From positions 739,569 through 803,568 of the forward strand of contig NZ_DS544873.1 of assembly GCF_000154725.1 (NCBI RefSeq): DNA of 64,000 nt. The letters are read 5' to 3'. Positions 44,897 through 64,000 of this stretch are shown piece after piece (position 1 is the stretch's first letter; each line of letters begins with the position of its first letter). Both the position numbers and the translations under genes were made by a program. Below the pieces are notes generated by a model. It ran no database searches. It was not told the origin of the DNA and worked only from the letters and a program-made list of their open reading frames with translations. This DNA is from Kordia algicida OT-1. GTDB taxonomy: Bacteria > Bacteroidota > Bacteroidia > Flavobacteriales > Flavobacteriaceae.

Positions 44897-44971
44897 GGTG
44901 ATTGTAGCTCAGTTGGTTAGAGCGCTGGATTGTGGTTCCAGAGGTCGTGGGTTCGAACCCCATCTTTCACC
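44897..44971 (+). tRNA. tRNA-His (anticodon GTG)
   Basis: The sequence folds as a cloverleaf: G-1, acceptor GTGATTG, D arm GCTC/GAGC with AGTTGGTTA, anticodon arm CTGGA-TTGTGGT-TCCAG with anticodon GTG, T arm GTGGG-TTCGAAC-CCCAT, and acceptor 3' strand CTTTCAC then C73. The acceptor stem has two U-U mismatches (positions 5-68 and 6-67); CAATCAC would be fully complementary. G-1/C73 are both present, as required by histidyl-tRNA synthetase. CCA is only partly encoded. This gene is the apparent insertion site of the element that starts to its right. Confidence 0.95.
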
Positions 44972-44975
44972 CATA

Positions 44976-45006
44976 ACATAACCCCTTCATAAAGAAGGGG
45001 TTATGT
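44976..45006 (+). terminator. intrinsic terminator after tRNA-His
   Basis: Perfect 13-bp stem ACATAACCCCTTC / GAAGGGGTTATGT with an ATAAA loop and a T tract after it. Confidence 0.9.
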
Positions 45007-45051
45007 CGTTTTTGTAACTTTTTTAATAGTATGATTTGTTTCTTTTTTAGC

Positions 45052-45076
45052 TAGGAGCACCGTATAGGAGCACCGT
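45052..45076. repeat. direct repeat TAGGAGCACCGT x2 near the element's left end
   Basis: TAGGAGCACCGT occurs at 45052-45063 and 45065-45076, separated by one base. It lies 13 bases from the integrase stop codon and about 80 bases from the tRNA end. Such direct repeats at integron-like and ICE ends commonly bind the arm-type domain of the integrase or the excisionase. Confidence 0.75.
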
Positions 45077-45089
45077 TTCGATGCATTTT

Positions 45090-46433
45090 TTAGCCAAAAA
45101 TGTCCAATTTTTTTACAGCTTTGTCAACTACTTTCTTATCAATATAATGCTTTTGAAGTACTTCGTCAGTAGAGTGTGAAGATAAAGATTTTGCTTCTCC
45201 ACCAAGAGCCGAAACAAGATAAGTTAAGTACGTTTTACGTAGGTTTTTAAATTGTAACTTTCTCTCAGTTCCTAAAAGATCATAATAGTGCGAAAATCCT
45301 TTAGAAATAGCATCCATCATTGATTGAGTTTTTGCTTTTCTATTCGGTGCTAGAATATATTCGTGACTACCTATATTTTCATTGTATCCTAGCCGTAAGA
45401 GCAGTTTCATAAGGCTCTGAGTAATTGGAATTATTTTAGGTTTTACATTATCTGCAAAAGCTTTACCCTTTTGTCTTTCTACCTTTAAATTCGAAACAAC
45501 TATATATGAAGGTTCATTATTGGTTTCTTTAATCATATTCCATTTTAGTTCTACAACTTCTTCACGTCTTCCTCCTGTATGTAATCCTAGCTCAAAAGCA
45601 TCTTTGAGATAATCTCTATACCTATTTTTTTTACTTTTGCCTTCCATAACGTACCCGTTTAAGGGAGAGATAATTTCTAAAAGCTTTTTGAATTCATCAG
45701 CAGTTATGGTTTCATTATCACTTGTTTCAGGTCTTTTTTGAAATCCTTTAAATGGATTTGTCATTTTTAATTCAAACTTTTCTATCGACCATATAAAGAA
45801 TGATTTGATTATTCCCATTTTTTTATTGTAAGTCCGATTCGCATGATGCAAATCTTCAAGCAAATACTTATGAAAATACCCTACATGCTTGTCATTGATT
45901 TTGGAAATTATAATGATTTTTGGATTTACTTTATTTTTTTTCAAAGCATTATTGAAAAACTCAATTGTTTTTTCAATCTCATCAATATGTTTTTTTGATC
46001 GATCTTTTTTCTTATGTTCAGGGACGCCAATATTTTCAAGAAAATCCATATATAATACTTGTGCATCGATAAGGTAATGACGTCTAGGAGAAACTTCAGG
46101 ATTAAAGTCGATCTCTCTTATCCCTTTGAATTCATTTTCAAATTCAATTGCTTGTGAAACAGCCTGATCATAGGTTTCGGCATCATGGGTTTTTACTGCT
46201 TTCTTATCTCTTGTGCCTGGTATATGGATTCTTGATTTATACTTATGAATTTCATGTTCTTTACATTTAGAAAAGTTCTTTTTTGTTAGTCCACAGGTGT
46301 TTTCTTCCTTTGTATGAATACCATTTTCTTGTTTAATATATCTTTTAGTCCACGAAAAGTTCTTTTTACACTTGTAACAATATATTAAAAGTCCTTTGTG
46401 CTTATTTGAGGGTAGATGTTTTCTTTTTGCCAT
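45090..46433 (-). CDS. tyrosine recombinase (integrase)
   Basis: The 447-residue protein inserts the element at tRNA-His. The C-terminal catalytic domain holds LHTGGRREEVVELKW (Arg289), the second arginine in FKNLRKTYLTYL (Arg399), SSHSTDEVLQKHYID (His420) and nucleophile Tyr430. The usual His of the HxxR box is replaced by Lys396 (KNLR). The N-terminus has a zinc-ribbon-like group of cysteines (C19, C22, C47, C57) instead of the common arm-binding domain. The gene directly follows, with 3 bases between, the small probable excisionase gene. The tRNA end and direct repeats are immediately downstream of its stop. Confidence 0.94.
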   Translation of the reverse strand: MAKRKHLPSNKHKGLLIYCYKCKKNFSWTKRYIKQENGIHTKEENTCGLTKKNFSKCKEHEIHKYKSRIHIPGTRDKKAVKTHDAETYDQAVSQAIEFENEFKGIREIDFNPEVSPRRHYLIDAQVLYMDFLENIGVPEHKKKDRSKKHIDEIEKTIEFFNNALKKNKVNPKIIIISKINDKHVGYFHKYLLEDLHHANRTYNKKMGIIKSFFIWSIEKFELKMTNPFKGFQKRPETSDNETITADEFKKLLEIISPLNGYVMEGKSKKNRYRDYLKDAFELGLHTGGRREEVVELKWNMIKETNNEPSYIVVSNLKVERQKGKAFADNVKPKIIPITQSLMKLLLRLGYNENIGSHEYILAPNRKAKTQSMMDAISKGFSHYYDLLGTERKLQFKNLRKTYLTYLVSALGGEAKSLSSHSTDEVLQKHYIDKKVVDKAVKKLDIFG

Positions 46434-59126: not shown

Positions 59127-59359
59127 ATTACAACTTTTCTTTCTTTTAAAAATAATCTTATACTTTAGCTGTCAGATTTTTTTGATGATGTAAATGTAAT
59201 GTAAGATATAGCTTAAGTACAAAAAATGTAAACCATTATTTACAAATTAACAGGTGTTATTTATAAATTCTTCAGTAATTTTATTATTAAAACACCTTAA
59301 ACTAGATTGGAAGTCAATAAAATAAAATCATATAAGTATTTATGTTGGTAAGTTTTGAA

Positions 59360-61048
59360 ATGAAAAAGTATCTTGTTTCTATATTGATCTTTACAAGTAT
59401 AATTTCAATGAATGCACAGATTAATAAAATCGATTCGTTGAATGAATATACTTATAGAGAATTAGTTAAGAAATTTTCTTCATCTAAAGATTCAAAGGAA
59501 TTATATGCAAAATACTATTTATCAAAAGCTAAAAATTCAAGAGATACTTTACGTATTGCAAAAGGATATAAATTGATTACGTTTATAGTTACATCTGATA
59601 TAGCAATAAAATACTCTGACTCTATTATTAAAATATCAAAAGGAAAACCATATAAAAGTTATCCAGCAGAAGGTTACTTATTAAAAGCATATTATTTATA
59701 TCAAAAAGGTAGTTATAAAGATGCGTTAGATAATTACATAAAAGCACTGCCTTTAGCTAAAGAGAGAAAGAATACCAAACAGTTATTTAGAATTAGACAA
59801 GGTATAGGTACACTAAAAAGTAGGTTTGGAAACTACAATGAAGCTTTAAGAATATACAAAGAAGATCTGAACTTCATACAAACATTAACAAACTATAAGG
59901 TAAAGTATAAGAAAGATTATTTAAGTGCAATATTTAACATTAGCAATATATTTCTAAAAACTAAAAATCTTGATTCAGCTAAAATGTATCTTGAAAAAGG
60001 TATATCAGAGAGTCTTACACTTAAAGATACTGTAATGTATTACGATTTTGTTACTGCTTCTGGGTATGAAAAATATTATAGTAATGATTTTACCGAAGCT
60101 TTGAGAATTCTAAATCTTACTGCGCCACATTTGAAAGGATATAGCCTAGGAGTCAGTTATTATTATAAAGGTAAATGTTATCAAAAATTAGGCAGTAAAG
60201 AAAAAATGCTTCATCAATTTAAAAAAGCAGATAGTATTTATCAATTGAATAAAGACTTATTTCCTGAGTTAAGAAATATTTATGAGTTTTTTATTGATCA
60301 CTACAAAGAAAAGAAAAAAACTAAACAGCAATTGTATTACTTAGAAAAACTTATTTCAATAGATAGTATCCTTGATAAGCAGTACAACTATTTAAGTTCA
60401 GAAATTGTAAAAAAATATGACACTCCATTATTATTGAATGAGCAGGAAAGATTAAAGAATGAAGTTGAGTCTTTAAACAAACAAAATATGCGTTCAAATT
60501 TTGGATTAGGTATTTCCTTAGTTTTTATTTCAATCATTGCCATTTTTCTTATTTATTATTATGAGCAACAGAAAAAATATAAGCGTAAATTCATTGAAAC
60601 GATTAATAAATCAAAAAAGGAGAACGAAGAAAAGGAAAGGAAAGAAAAGTCCGAAGTTGATAAGAAAGATTTAGGTATAAGCAAAGAAATTATTAATGAA
60701 ATTTTACAAAAATTAAATGAATTTGAAGCTAATAATATTTTTTTAAAATCAGACATCACAGTTGCAAGTTTAGCAAAAGATTTTAACACAAATACGACAT
60801 ATTTATCTAAAATAATCAATGTGAATAGGGGAAAAAATTTTAGTTCATACTTGAAAGAATTAAGAGTTAATTATGCTATTGAACAATTACAAAATAATTC
60901 TCAATTTCGGAAATATTCAGTCAAGGCTATTGCTTACGAAATAGGTTTTAACAACGTAGATTATTTTTCTAAGGCTTTTTACAAAATAACAGGAATACAA
61001 CCTTCATATTTTATAAAGCAGTTGGAAAAGCAAGAAAATAAGGAATAA
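59360..61048 (+). CDS. membrane-spanning TPR regulator with cytoplasmic AraC-type HTH domain, second copy
   Basis: The start at ATG 59360 (MKKYLVSILIFTSIISMNAQ) is preferred to the earlier ATG at 59342 because it gives a clean signal peptide. The 562-residue protein has the same order of parts as the regulator at 27102: periplasmic TPR solenoid (SLKDTVMYYDFV, ALRILNLTAPHLKG), a membrane span (NFGLGISLVFISIIAIFLIYYY, about 380-402), a coiled coil rich in Glu and Lys, and an AraC DNA-binding domain (DITVASLAKDFNTNTTYLSKIINV ... AYEIGFNNVDYFSKAFYKITGIQPSYF). It is followed by an acidic GG-leader peptide at 61154 and a prolyl oligopeptidase. Confidence 0.87.
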   Translation: MKKYLVSILIFTSIISMNAQINKIDSLNEYTYRELVKKFSSSKDSKELYAKYYLSKAKNSRDTLRIAKGYKLITFIVTSDIAIKYSDSIIKISKGKPYKSYPAEGYLLKAYYLYQKGSYKDALDNYIKALPLAKERKNTKQLFRIRQGIGTLKSRFGNYNEALRIYKEDLNFIQTLTNYKVKYKKDYLSAIFNISNIFLKTKNLDSAKMYLEKGISESLTLKDTVMYYDFVTASGYEKYYSNDFTEALRILNLTAPHLKGYSLGVSYYYKGKCYQKLGSKEKMLHQFKKADSIYQLNKDLFPELRNIYEFFIDHYKEKKKTKQQLYYLEKLISIDSILDKQYNYLSSEIVKKYDTPLLLNEQERLKNEVESLNKQNMRSNFGLGISLVFISIIAIFLIYYYEQQKKYKRKFIETINKSKKENEEKERKEKSEVDKKDLGISKEIINEILQKLNEFEANNIFLKSDITVASLAKDFNTNTTYLSKIINVNRGKNFSSYLKELRVNYAIEQLQNNSQFRKYSVKAIAYEIGFNNVDYFSKAFYKITGIQPSYFIKQLEKQENKE

Positions 61049-61117
61049 TATCACCTATAATTTGTAAATAATGGGCTGTAACTTCCCACTTATATTAGTA
61101 TTTACTTGATTTTTATA

Positions 61118-61125
61118 TAGATTTG
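61118..61125 (+). promoter_or_regulatory. -7 promoter element of the acidic peptide gene
   Basis: TAGATTTG matches the TAnnTTTG -7 element, 28 bases before the peptide start codon. No TTTG at the right -33 distance is visible. Confidence 0.5.
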
Positions 61126-61153
61126 AAATGTTTATAATTAAAAACTAATAAAG

Positions 61154-61306
61154 ATGAAGAAAAAAAAATTAACAATGTTAATCGGAAAATCGATAACCAA
61201 TAAAAAATTATTATTTTCAATTGTAGGGGGTGATGACGATGACGATCCTGTTGATAAAGACAAAACTAGACCTCCAACGGTTGACGACGATATTACAAAT
61301 GATTGA
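61154..61306 (+). CDS. GG-leader peptide with acidic core, 50 aa
   Basis: The peptide has a basic, hydrophobic leader (MKKKKLTMLIGKSITNKKLL, FSIV) that ends in GG (25-26), then a strikingly acidic core of 24 residues beginning with five Asp (DDDDDPVDKDKTRPPTVDDD) and ending ITND. It has no cysteine and few Ser/Thr, so lanthionine formation is unlikely. It is too short to be seen in ordinary gene calling, but the leader, the terminator directly after it and the regulator before it support a real gene. The leader resembles those of the peptides at 5142 and 28959. Confidence 0.72.
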   Translation: MKKKKLTMLIGKSITNKKLLFSIVGGDDDDDPVDKDKTRPPTVDDDITND

Positions 61307-61311
61307 TAATA

Positions 61312-61353
61312 AAAACAACAAAAAGCATTATTAAAAATACTTTTTGTTGTTTT
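61312..61353 (+). terminator. intrinsic terminator of the acidic peptide gene
   Basis: The 14-bp stem AAAACAACAAAAAG / CTTTTTGTTGTTTT encloses a 14-base loop, is followed by CATTTTTTATC-like T-rich sequence, and lies six bases after the stop codon. Confidence 0.85.
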
Positions 61354-61396
61354 TCATTTTTTATCTTAACCTACATTTATTTAGAAATCTCTCAAT

Positions 61397-63598
61397 ATGA
61401 AAATATACATAAAAATTTTTATCATTTGCATTTGGCTATTCTCATGCGATTCTAAAACTAACAAAATAAATTTACCTCCTTATCCAACTATAAACAAAAA
61501 ATTAGTAACAGAAAATATTTGTGATACTACTGTTAATGATTATTATAGAAATTTAGAAAACGCCGAGGATAGTTTAGTAAATAATTGGTATAAACAACAG
61601 GGAGATTACGCAAGTAATATTTTATCAAAAATTAGCGGCAAAGATGGTCTAGCTAAATCTATGCAAGACCTTAGTAATAGAAAAAGTTATAGAGTAAGAA
61701 GAACAAATATAGTAGCTGACGATCAGTATTTTTTCTTAAAAAAGATGCCTAATGAGAAAAAATTCAAACTTTTTTATAAAAGTGGGTATGATGGAAAAGA
61801 CGAATTTTTATATGACCCTAATACATTTAAGCCTGAAACAAAACATGATTACGTTATAAATTATATTCGTCCAAGTTGGAATGGACAATACGTGGTTGTG
61901 GCACTCACATATGAAGGAAGAGAGGTTGCTGAAATGATTATCATTGACATGAAAACTAAAAAACCTCTAGCTGAAATAATCGGTTCTTCGTGGGCAGCTT
62001 CATTTTACGGTGTAGACTGGCTTCCTGATAATAGTGGTTTTACTTATTTACACTTTCCTAACTTGAGCAAGAATAATAAAAGGGCAAAGACTAATACACA
62101 AGCTGTATTATACAAAATTGGGCAAAACCCAAAAAATATAACACCAATATTTAGTCCTCAAAATAACCCTGAATTAAATCTTGATATAACAAGCTACCCG
62201 ATAGTTGAAATTGATAACCCTAACCAAAAATATGCAATAGGTTACATGGTTAATGTTAGTAATTATTTTGATGCATATTATACAGAAATCGAAAATTTAG
62301 ATAAAAAAAAGGTTAACTGGAAACCATTGTTCACAAAAAAAGATAAGGTATACAAGACAGCATGCGAAATTAAAAATGACACAATAACCTTTAAATCAGC
62401 TTATGGAGCATCAAATTACCAAATAGCTCAAACAAGGCTATCTTCTCCTGATTTCAAATCTCCAACTATAATTGTGCCTGAGAATTTAGATGAAATAATT
62501 GGTGAATTTAAAGAAATGCCCAATAGCTTATTTTTTACTACGACGAAAAACGGAGTACAGGCTAAATTTTACCAACTAGATAAAAATGAAATTAAGGAGA
62601 TTAAATTACCTAAAGAATCAGGTAGTATTTCACTAAGATCATATAATAATATTGATTTATTTGTGACAATTAGAGGTTGGTTGAACAAAAGTGAACGATA
62701 CTTATATTCTTCTAATGATAATAAATTTACTTACTTACCACTTTCGCCAATAATAAATTATCCTGAATTTAAAGATTTCATTGCAAAGGAAATTGAAGTT
62801 ATAAATCAAGATGGGGTAAATATTCCATTGTCAATTATCCATCATAAAGATACAGAGTTAAATGGTAAGAATCCCGTTTTTATTTATGGTTATGGTGCTT
62901 ACGGAGATATTGAGAAACCTGCTTTTTCTCCTATTTTTTTAACATGGGTTGCTAATGGAGGGGTATTGTGTATCGCTCATGTTAGAGGTGGTGGAGAAAA
63001 AGGAGAAGCTTGGCACTTAGGTGGAATGAAATTAAATAAGCCGAACTCATGGGGAGATTTGATAACCTGTACTGAATATCTTGTTGAAAAAAAATATTCT
63101 TCGCCAGAACACATTGCTCTATGGAGTAGTAGTGCAGGTGGTATAATGGCAGGGAGAGCAGTTACTGATCGACCAGACTTATTTAAAGCTGTAATTATAG
63201 ATGCGGGTGTTTTAAATCCTATCAGAAGGGAACAAAGTTATGGAGGAAGTAATCACAAAGAATATGGTAGTATGAAAGATTCAATCGAGTGTAAAGGAGT
63301 AATAGCAATGGACGCATATTTTCACATTAAGGAAAACGTTATGTATCCAGCTATTTTACTTAATGCTGGAATGAATGACCCTAGAGTAGCTCCTTGGCAA
63401 TCGGGTAAATTTGGAGCAAGATTACAGGAAGTCAATAAATCCGACAACCCTATTTTGTTCCATGTTGATTATGATTCAGGACATGGTAATGGGACTACTG
63501 TTGGTAAGGTTTATGATCAATGGGCAAATATATTTTCCTTTGCATTTTGGCAAACAGGACATCCTGATTATCAGCTAGACAAAAGTTCTCTAAAATAA
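61397..63598 (+). CDS. prolyl oligopeptidase (S9A), lipoprotein-like
   Basis: The 733-residue protein begins with a lipoprotein-type signal (MKIYIKIFIICIWLFSC, Cys17). Residues about 60-430 form the seven-bladed propeller (FFLKKMPNEKKFKLFYKSG, PSWNGQYVVVAL, GVDWLPDNSGFTYLHF), and the C-terminal alpha/beta hydrolase domain has GYGAYG, VRGGGEKGEAWHLGG, nucleophile Ser579 (SSSAGG), Asp661 (NAGMNDPRV) and His696 (DSGHGNG). S9A enzymes cut after proline in short peptides. It follows the peptide terminator by 44 bases, and the peptide core contains DPVDK and RPPT, i.e. proline-containing sites; this is only suggestive. Confidence 0.92.
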   Translation: MKIYIKIFIICIWLFSCDSKTNKINLPPYPTINKKLVTENICDTTVNDYYRNLENAEDSLVNNWYKQQGDYASNILSKISGKDGLAKSMQDLSNRKSYRVRRTNIVADDQYFFLKKMPNEKKFKLFYKSGYDGKDEFLYDPNTFKPETKHDYVINYIRPSWNGQYVVVALTYEGREVAEMIIIDMKTKKPLAEIIGSSWAASFYGVDWLPDNSGFTYLHFPNLSKNNKRAKTNTQAVLYKIGQNPKNITPIFSPQNNPELNLDITSYPIVEIDNPNQKYAIGYMVNVSNYFDAYYTEIENLDKKKVNWKPLFTKKDKVYKTACEIKNDTITFKSAYGASNYQIAQTRLSSPDFKSPTIIVPENLDEIIGEFKEMPNSLFFTTTKNGVQAKFYQLDKNEIKEIKLPKESGSISLRSYNNIDLFVTIRGWLNKSERYLYSSNDNKFTYLPLSPIINYPEFKDFIAKEIEVINQDGVNIPLSIIHHKDTELNGKNPVFIYGYGAYGDIEKPAFSPIFLTWVANGGVLCIAHVRGGGEKGEAWHLGGMKLNKPNSWGDLITCTEYLVEKKYSSPEHIALWSSSAGGIMAGRAVTDRPDLFKAVIIDAGVLNPIRREQSYGGSNHKEYGSMKDSIECKGVIAMDAYFHIKENVMYPAILLNAGMNDPRVAPWQSGKFGARLQEVNKSDNPILFHVDYDSGHGNGTTVGKVYDQWANIFSFAFWQTGHPDYQLDKSSLK

Positions 63599-63619: not shown

Positions 63620-64000
63620 ATGTATCTTATTTGGGCACTCATCAATACGGCATTGATCATCTTATTTTGGGCATTAGTATTAACGCTATTTTCCAAAGGA
63701 AAGCAATTATTTAATAACAAATATGGCAATGCCATTATTGTAATATTCGTACTAGGCGTTATTGGAATGTTGAGCTTTAAGGAAATAGATATTAAAGACA
63801 ATAGGTACGTTTCAGATATGAAAATAGAAAACAAAGATCGTGATAAGATCGTATCAAGAGATGTTCGACTGGAAGATAATGGCATTTTCCATATATCATT
63901 ACACACACGGTATTTAGAAGAAGCTGATAAAGTAACATTACTACATGGTCATGCAACTAGAAGTGGTTTTGTGACTGGATTTCAATGGAAGTTTGGGTCT
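63620..64000 (+). CDS. hypothetical membrane protein, 3' truncated by the window
   Basis: An ATG at 63620, 22 bases after the peptidase stop, opens a frame that runs to the window end (127 codons seen). It has two hydrophobic segments (LIWALINTALIILFWALVLTLF and AIIVIFVLGVIGMLSF) then a soluble region with KDNRYVSDMKIENKDRDKIV and GFVTGFQWKFGS. No family is recognised from this part. It is likely in the same operon as the prolyl oligopeptidase. Confidence 0.6.
   Translation, partial: MYLIWALINTALIILFWALVLTLFSKGKQLFNNKYGNAIIVIFVLGVIGMLSFKEIDIKDNRYVSDMKIENKDRDKIVSRDVRLEDNGIFHISLHTRYLEEADKVTLLHGHATRSGFVTGFQWKFGS

What the first reader, a model, noticed from the sequence alone, without database searches (positions are those of the whole stretch)
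59360..63598. Module B: the same regulator architecture + acidic GG-leader peptide + prolyl oligopeptidase, inside the element
A second, independent copy of the order regulator, GG-leader peptide, alpha/beta-fold serine hydrolase occurs about 32 kb away, but the peptide core is different (24 acidic residues, no Cys) and the hydrolase belongs to another family (S9A). Two occurrences with a different cargo and the same control logic argue for a swappable cassette, and one copy lies to the right of an integrase.
Basis: partly seen in the sequence, partly recalled or inferred. Interest (0 to 1): 0.8.

Follow-up and report, generated by a model that had tools for sequence, protein, structure and literature searches.

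The report
Regulator, peptide and protease cassette
A marine bacterium carries a compact, recurring gene cassette in which a predicted membrane-spanning sensor-regulator sits beside a small GG-leader peptide and an exported protease, which looks like an undescribed, self-wired peptide signalling or peptide-weapon circuit.

Summary
The three genes are real: a TPR–membrane–AraC regulator, a 50-aa GG-leader peptide with a 24-aa Asp-rich core, and an exported prolyl oligopeptidase (S9). The order recurs in Flavobacteriaceae. Of 102 related regulators in 80 loci, 50 are followed by a GG-peptide (10 of 487 other genes) and 33 by an S9 or S8 serine peptidase (3 of 487). In 11 genomes of the genus, 19 of 22 peptidases of this S9 subfamily lie directly behind such a regulator, 0 of 23 other S9 genes. 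So the exchanged partner is an exported peptidase of two unrelated folds, not any alpha/beta hydrolase; module A's hydrolases look like bystanders. A 17-bp site occurs twice in the 5.03-Mb genome, before regulator B and, inverted, before peptide B. A promoter box precedes 30 of 57 peptides and a hairpin often separates peptide from peptidase. Best reading: a private autoregulated circuit in which a periplasmic TPR domain senses a secreted peptide that the peptidase matures or destroys. The architecture is well supported; ligand, export and cleavage are inferred. No description appeared in ten library searches.

The parts
59233..59249 (+). Candidate operator copy 1 (17 bp), upstream of the regulator
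   Evidence: Exact inverted match to 61058-61074; no other copy with up to 1 mismatch in the 5.03-Mb genome
59360..61048 (+). TPR-TM-AraC regulator (562 aa; alternative start 59342)
   Evidence: Pfam HTH_18 4.7e-15, TPR_12 3.7e-9; one central hydrophobic segment, N-terminal one below the threshold used; AlphaFold2 model mean pLDDT 90.5
61058..61074 (-). Candidate operator copy 2, inverted, 80-96 bp before the peptide start
61118..61125 (+). TAnnTTTG (-7 type) promoter box of the peptide gene
   Evidence: At -36 from the ATG; same box in 30 of 57 upstream regions (this one included), shuffles mean 5.5, max 12; the consensus is recalled, from no call
61154..61306 (+). GG-leader peptide gene, 50 aa, acidic Cys-free core
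   Evidence: related peptides show pN<pS in 36 of 36 pairs (peptide B itself is in none of these pairs)
61311..61354 (+). Hairpin with T-rich 3' side between peptide and peptidase
   Evidence: -15.1 kcal/mol, z -3.9; the separate terminator scan, which wants 3 G-C pairs, did not list it
61397..63598 (+). Exported prolyl oligopeptidase (S9), 733 aa, lipoprotein-like N-terminus (by eye)
   Evidence: Pfam; S579, D661, H696 invariant in 18 of 18; aligns with prolyl endopeptidase 2bkl
63620..64000 (+). 170-aa protein, two N-terminal helices and a beta domain (runs off the window, ends at 64132); accessory
   Evidence: Homologues follow the peptidase in L065 and L066 of the same genome (48-75% identity); model pLDDT 81; no clear fold match

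Best explanation
A self-contained, autoregulated peptide circuit. SHOWN by sequence: a regulator with TPR domain, one TM helix and an AraC-type HTH is encoded next to a short GG-leader peptide and a serine peptidase with a signal-like N-terminus; the peptide gene has a promoter box of its own; the regulator and peptide genes share a private upstream site; a hairpin lies between peptide and peptidase. INFERRED: the peptide is exported and cut at GG by one of the genome's C39-peptidase ABC transporters; the peptidase, in the periplasm or on the surface, trims the 24-aa core to the active form or destroys it; the TPR domain, outside the cytoplasm, binds the product and, across the membrane, makes the HTH activate the peptide/peptidase promoter and its own. 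The hairpin would give much peptide and little peptidase. Many parallel circuits with diverged sensors and cores coexist in one genome (16 full-length regulators by my count).
For: Linkage far above background and in the reverse direction. In the own genome 14 of 16 full-length TPR-AraC genes are followed on the same strand by a GG-peptide within about 0.6 kb (read by eye). Topology: 103 of 107 regulators have a central TM segment, the C-side is the more positive in 96 of 103. 39 of 39 S9/S8 genes have a hydrophobic N-terminus. Peptides next to a peptidase have shorter, Cys-poorer cores with a higher acidic fraction (medians 27.5 and 29 vs 45 aa; under 2 Cys in 21 of 27 vs 5 of 28), though net charge does not differ. 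Private site; promoter box; palindromes with p<=0.05 in 17 of 57 upstream regions, 16 of them centred -77 to -115; hairpin z<-2 in 16 of 23. Sensor parts diverge more than HTH parts. The model resembles peptide-binding TPR proteins, Rap and NprR among the first 50 hits. One locus reads regulator, peptide, C39 ABC transporter (L137).
Against: No binding or cleavage is shown. TPR hits are led by LGN, with Rap at rank 30 and NprR at 49, so the fold is not specific. Core similarity tracks TPR identity no better than HTH identity (partial r 0.097 vs 0.163): no receptor-ligand covariation found. Five of 16 S9-linked cores have no proline (read). The second-closest orthologue (G002) has regulator and peptidase with no peptide between. 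Five of 22 peptidases have in-frame stops. 46 of 102 regulators have no peptide even by relaxed rules, and 12 of 30 in the genus set. No C39 transporter lies in the L061 stretch around module B. Regulator B's N-terminal segment stays below the hydropathy threshold that 71 of 107 pass, and its site is not a palindrome (p 1.0). A site present only twice implies no target outside the cassette, odd for a quorum sensor. Related loci are not independent, so P values are nominal.
Confidence: 0.5

Rival explanations
1. Effector operon: the peptide is a secreted antagonistic or matrix-acting peptide, the S9/S8 enzyme is its dedicated maturation protease (like the lanthipeptide proteases LanPA/LanPB), and the regulator senses something else (stress, a competitor's peptide).
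For: The leaders resemble those of Bacteroidetes class I lanthipeptides: LxLxKx5L in 36 of 61 distinct leaders, 0.5 expected in shuffles. PMC7268733 (passages) reports this motif, the GG ending and C39 enzymes in Bacteroidetes, and names subtilisin-type LanPA and, for class III clusters of Firmicutes, POP-type LanPB. The private site makes the cassette its own output. Variable cores, many copies and an island location fit competition.
Against: Peptide B has no Cys and no family hit; the one LanB-type dehydratase (PF04738) of the genome lies elsewhere. Acidic cores are unlike typical cationic bacteriocins (recalled).
Confidence: 0.3
2. The peptidase is the output and the peptide its propeptide-like inhibitor or regulator, titrated by the regulator's signal.
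For: Peptide and peptidase go together and such cores are short and acid-rich; one orthologue keeps the peptidase without peptide.
Against: About as many distinct peptides lack a peptidase behind them (28) as have one (27); one kind of small peptide would have to serve two unrelated folds.
Confidence: 0.1
3. Chance neighbourhood in a variable island; no module.
For: Probably holds for module A's hydrolases; a clade of the genus has regulator plus alpha/beta hydrolase and no peptide.
Confidence: 0.03

Closest known systems
RRNPP quorum-sensing pairs of Firmicutes (Rap-Phr, NprR, Rgg)
   Same: Peptide gene adjacent to a TPR receptor; secreted peptide trimmed by extracellular proteases (PMC10075063 passages; PMC11343458 abstract)
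   Different: Here the receptor is 562 aa, is predicted to span the membrane with the TPR part outside the cytoplasm, carries an AraC HTH, and the peptide has a GG leader; the phylum is Bacteroidota; a peptidase is encoded in the cassette
Class I lanthipeptide clusters of Bacteroidetes; LanPA/LanPB proteases
   Same: LxLxKx5L...GG leaders in many of the related peptides, and S8 or S9 proteases as in lanthipeptide maturation (PMC7268733 passages; PMC10885120 passages)
   Different: No LanB beside the module, Cys-poor cores where a peptidase is present, a transmembrane regulator in front; LanPB was named for class III clusters of Firmicutes
Putative Bacteroidales RiPP clusters with PCAT, TPR proteins or signalling proteins beside the precursor
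   Same: GG-precursors near TPR or signalling genes, a signalling role suggested (PMC10352776 passages)
   Different: The passages describe clusters with modification enzymes; no TPR-AraC plus S8/S9 peptidase cassette was seen in them (the paper was not read in full)
Membrane-anchored TPR/AraC-type one-component regulators of Bacteroidota
   Same: Same domain order (Pfam hits)
   Different: No peptide partner known to me (recalled)

Membership tests
RRNPP quorum sensing | Propeptide gene directly adjacent to receptor gene | tested here: met
RRNPP quorum sensing | Receptor with TPRs | tested here: met
   model
RRNPP quorum sensing | Receptor 250-500 aa (detector rule, PMC10075063 passage) | tested here: not met
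   562 aa
RRNPP quorum sensing | Cytoplasmic receptor with re-imported peptide | tested here: not met
   One TM segment between TPR and HTH, positive side at the HTH; prediction, not experiment
RRNPP quorum sensing | Peptide binds the TPR domain | not testable with these tools
   -
Class I lanthipeptide (Bacteroidetes type) | L1a-type leader / LxLxKx5L | tested here: not met
   Peptide B: no NCBIfam hit, strict motif absent, relaxed hydrophobic form present; strict motif in 36 of 61 related peptides
Class I lanthipeptide (Bacteroidetes type) | Cys in the core for thioether rings | tested here: not met
   0 Cys
Class I lanthipeptide (Bacteroidetes type) | LanB dehydratase in the locus | tested here: not met
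   One PF04738 match in the genome, elsewhere
GG-leader peptides cut by C39 transporters | GG at the end of a short leader | tested here: met
   GG at 25-26
GG-leader peptides cut by C39 transporters | C39 ABC transporter linked to the peptide | tested here: inconclusive
   None seen beside module B; 6 C39 matches in the genome, one of them weak; linked in L137 and in the L071 stretch
S9 prolyl oligopeptidase | Propeller plus peptidase domain with Ser-Asp-His | tested here: met
LanPA/LanPB leader proteases | S8 or S9 protease encoded with the precursor | tested here: met
LanPA/LanPB leader proteases | Cleaves the leader of the precursor | not testable with these tools

The most novel reading that the evidence does not exclude
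Flavobacteriaceae have a Gram-negative, transmembrane counterpart of RRNPP signalling: one-component TPR-AraC receptors that read a GG-exported peptide from outside the cytoplasm, each with its own peptide, its own operator and, in many, its own trimming peptidase (S8 or S9 interchangeably), run as a dozen or more insulated channels per genome and spread by islands.
Probability: 0.38. Interest if true: 0.88.

Novelty: new variant of a known kind. Interest (0 to 1): 0.7.

Why it matters
Peptide signalling through TPR receptors is known from Firmicutes. In the listings of my searches I saw no described equivalent of this cassette for Bacteroidota; most listed papers were not opened, and subscription journals and preprints are not held. 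If the reading holds, marine Flavobacteriaceae have a large set of insulated peptide channels whose receptor, ligand, promoter and processing enzyme sit together in about 4 kb, which makes specificity directly testable. If the effector reading holds instead, it marks a large stock of secreted peptides with built-in maturation proteases.

Tried and rejected
Module A as a second example with another hydrolase: not supported. Lanthipeptide membership of peptide B: rejected. Receptor-ligand covariation by partial Mantel: not specific. Attachment-site pair by repeat of the tRNA end or direct repeats: none found. The 170-aa membrane protein as a fixed part: it lies next to the peptidase in 3 of 3 copies of this genome, with matches in L079 and L121, but the homologues of 3 other family genomes (4 of 120 searched, this one included) show no cassette within 1.5 kb; its fold search gave no clear relative. 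Generic sigma-70 scan: 34 found, 30.7 expected. Defence-library scan of the two genes L061:8888-12981 beyond the module: nothing. Literature: ten searches; papers were seen as passages (PMC8939145, PMC10734526, PMC10352776, PMC7268733, PMC10885120, PMC10075063) or abstract and outline (PMC11343458), none in full.
Full report
WHAT IS THERE. The window lies at 739569-803568 of a single 5.03-Mb contig. Module B consists of a regulator (59360-61048, alternative start 59342), a 50-aa peptide (61154-61306) and an S9 peptidase (61397-63598), all on the + strand. Beyond the window follow a 170-aa membrane protein, a 172-aa protein and a 1224-aa protein with weak N6-methylase matches. The core after GG is 24 aa, 11 Asp, no Glu, no Cys.

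IS IT MORE THAN CHANCE. A search of the own genome with regulator B returned 27 matches. By eye I count 16 full-length TPR-TM-AraC genes among them; HTH-only, partial or otherwise built matches were left out, without a domain search of each. Of the 16, 14 are followed on the same strand by a GG-leader peptide within about 0.6 kb; the two without are in L075 and the second regulator of L066. The third gene is S9 in three (B, L062, L064) and S8 subtilase in two (L065, L066). A search of named genomes with the six best own-genome regulators, chosen by score alone, gave 173 confirmed places, of which the tool kept the best 80: Kordia, Aquimarina, Leptobacterium, Tenacibaculum, Polaribacter, Sinomicrobium and others. 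In these 80 loci 102 regulators with at least 700 bp of room (103 in all) were compared with 487 other genes: strict GG-peptide downstream 50 vs 10 (odds ratio 46, P 9e-34), relaxed 56 vs 20, next same-strand gene S9/S8 33 vs 3 (19 S9, 14 S8). By the record titles the S9 cases are Kordia and Aquimarina; the S8 cases also include Leptobacterium, Tenacibaculum, Polaribacter and Sinomicrobium. Near species are not independent, so the P value is nominal. In the 30 genus loci fetched, 18 have a peptide, 12 an S9 and 2 an S8 gene behind the regulator.

THE REVERSE TEST. In 11 genomes of the genus 45 S9 matches were found with peptidase B. Comparing positions with the regulators (E up to 1e-60), 19 of the 22 strong matches (E below 1e-170) lie directly behind a regulator on the same strand, 2 begin within 1.1 kb of a contig start, and 1 (G002, 3219760) has none. 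None of the 23 weaker S9 matches lies by one of those regulators. Five of the 22 contain in-frame stops, so the peptidase is often lost.

TWO PEPTIDASE FAMILIES, ONE PLACE. S9 and S8 enzymes are unrelated in fold (established knowledge) but occupy the same position. On a quick tree of 107 regulators the S9 label needs 7 and the S8 label 8 changes (6 and 4 forced by well-supported branches); both are clustered. Some loci hold both (L079, L090). All 39 S9/S8 genes of the 80 loci have a hydrophobic N-terminus. The S9 triad is invariant in the 18 sequences aligned.

PEPTIDE AND PEPTIDASE GO TOGETHER. Among 55 distinct peptides, cores next to a peptidase (27) are shorter (medians 27.5 for S9, 29 for S8, against 45), poorer in Cys (under two in 21 of 27 against 5 of 28) and richer in Asp/Glu (0.19 against 0.13) than those without (28); net charge does not differ (P 0.36). 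Shared descent was not removed. Prolyl oligopeptidases accept peptides of up to about 30 residues (recalled), which most S9-linked cores fit; 5 of 16 have no proline. Peptides evolve as coding genes: pN below pS in 36 of 36 pairs over 55% identity, median ratio 0.42; these pairs overlap and some join different loci through the shared leader. Leaders carry LxLxKx5L in 36 of 61 distinct peptides, not in B.

CONTROL REGION. The Bacteroidetes -7 box TAnnTTTG (recalled) stands before 30 of 57 peptide genes, in 26 of the 30 at -29 to -43; single-base shuffles gave a mean of 5.5 and a maximum of 12. Palindromes with p<=0.05 occur in 17 of 57 regions (about 3 expected), 16 of them centred at -77 to -115; B's region has none. 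For module B the 17-bp CCATTATTTACAAATTA lies upstream of the regulator and, inverted, upstream of the peptide; the whole genome holds no third copy with up to one mismatch, and the reversed control none. Sharing of an upstream repeat by regulator and peptide reached p<=0.05 in 12 of 56 regions, about 3 expected, with 60 shuffles each. A hairpin between peptide and peptidase is stronger than shuffles (z<-2) in 16 of 23 regions; six regions under 40 bp were left out.

THE REGULATOR. 103 of 107 have a central TM segment and the C-side is the more positive in 96 of 103; an N-terminal segment passes the threshold in 71 of 107, not in B. So the TPR part should face the periplasm and the HTH the cytoplasm, if the N-terminus is a signal peptide or anchor. 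TPR parts average 30% identity against 54% for HTH parts. The model (pLDDT 90.5, pTM 0.67) resembles TPR superhelices: LGN first, Rap and NprR lower in the first 50; a profile search gives the same picture. This permits, but does not show, peptide binding. A partial Mantel test found no covariation special to core and TPR.

MODULE A. Regulators A and B share 26% identity. In the best locus of each of 11 genomes, 10 have a GG-peptide behind regulator A by my rule; hydrolase 1 follows only in G000 and G008, where it is 96% identical while the regulator is 66%. The loci reach 1.5 kb and L237 ends early. The hydrolases look like neighbours, not cargo.

THE ELEMENT. The PIG-L gene and tRNA-His occur in 11 of 11 genomes. 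Of the own genes to the right (to about 102.7 kb in window coordinates), the integrase and the next seven are found in the right flank of G003, the rest in no flank fetched except a 39-aa match in G001; flanks were 20 kb, G003's 9 kb. Relatives' flanks mostly differ from each other, though G002 and G004 share five genes further right. The orthologue of module B in G009 is on another contig than that tRNA; the one in G002 is followed by an integrase-like gene just under its Pfam cut-off. So module B sits in a variable island led by an integrase; its right end is not found.

VERDICT. How it works is inferred: a sensed and trimmed secreted peptide with autoregulation (0.5), or an effector peptide with its own protease (0.3). 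It works like an RRNPP pair but fails two of that family's defining features; peptide B is not a lanthipeptide.

Noticed in passing
G000 whole genome: 97 places match the lanthipeptide leader model NF038153 at E up to 10 (19 over its cut-off, two of these with neighbours; in 14 control genomes none over it), but only one PF04738 dehydratase was found, in the L071 stretch with a C39 transporter: a large orphan peptide stock.
   Followed up: partly
L077:3533-5657: A 370-aa regulator with AraC-type match but no TPR match is followed by four GG-leader peptides, so the peptide link may not be limited to TPR regulators.
   Followed up: no
L169-L173, L188: Six regulators of the genus close to B have no GG-peptide; in five of the six an alpha/beta hydrolase-like gene follows (checked by Pfam in L172 only), with a sigma-factor-like gene after it in L169 and L172.
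   Followed up: partly
L137:1261-7672: Regulator, GG-peptide, C39 ABC transporter and a 430-aa gene that may be a membrane fusion protein (untested) stand in a row, a direct link from peptide to exporter.
   Followed up: partly
window 44898-46433: tRNA-His with adjacent integrase is a variable site in the genus; one relative carries the same integrase backbone.
   Followed up: partly
L061:8888-12562: 1224-aa protein with weak Eco57I/N6-methylase matches follows module B; no PADLOC hit.
   Followed up: partly
G005, G006, G007, G008: Five of 22 cassette peptidases carry in-frame stops; four of the five still lie behind a regulator, the fifth begins near a contig start.
   Followed up: no
L096, L104, L117, L136, L143, L144, L149, L154, L157: Two related regulators stand near each other in tandem, in some loci each with its own peptide.
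   Followed up: no
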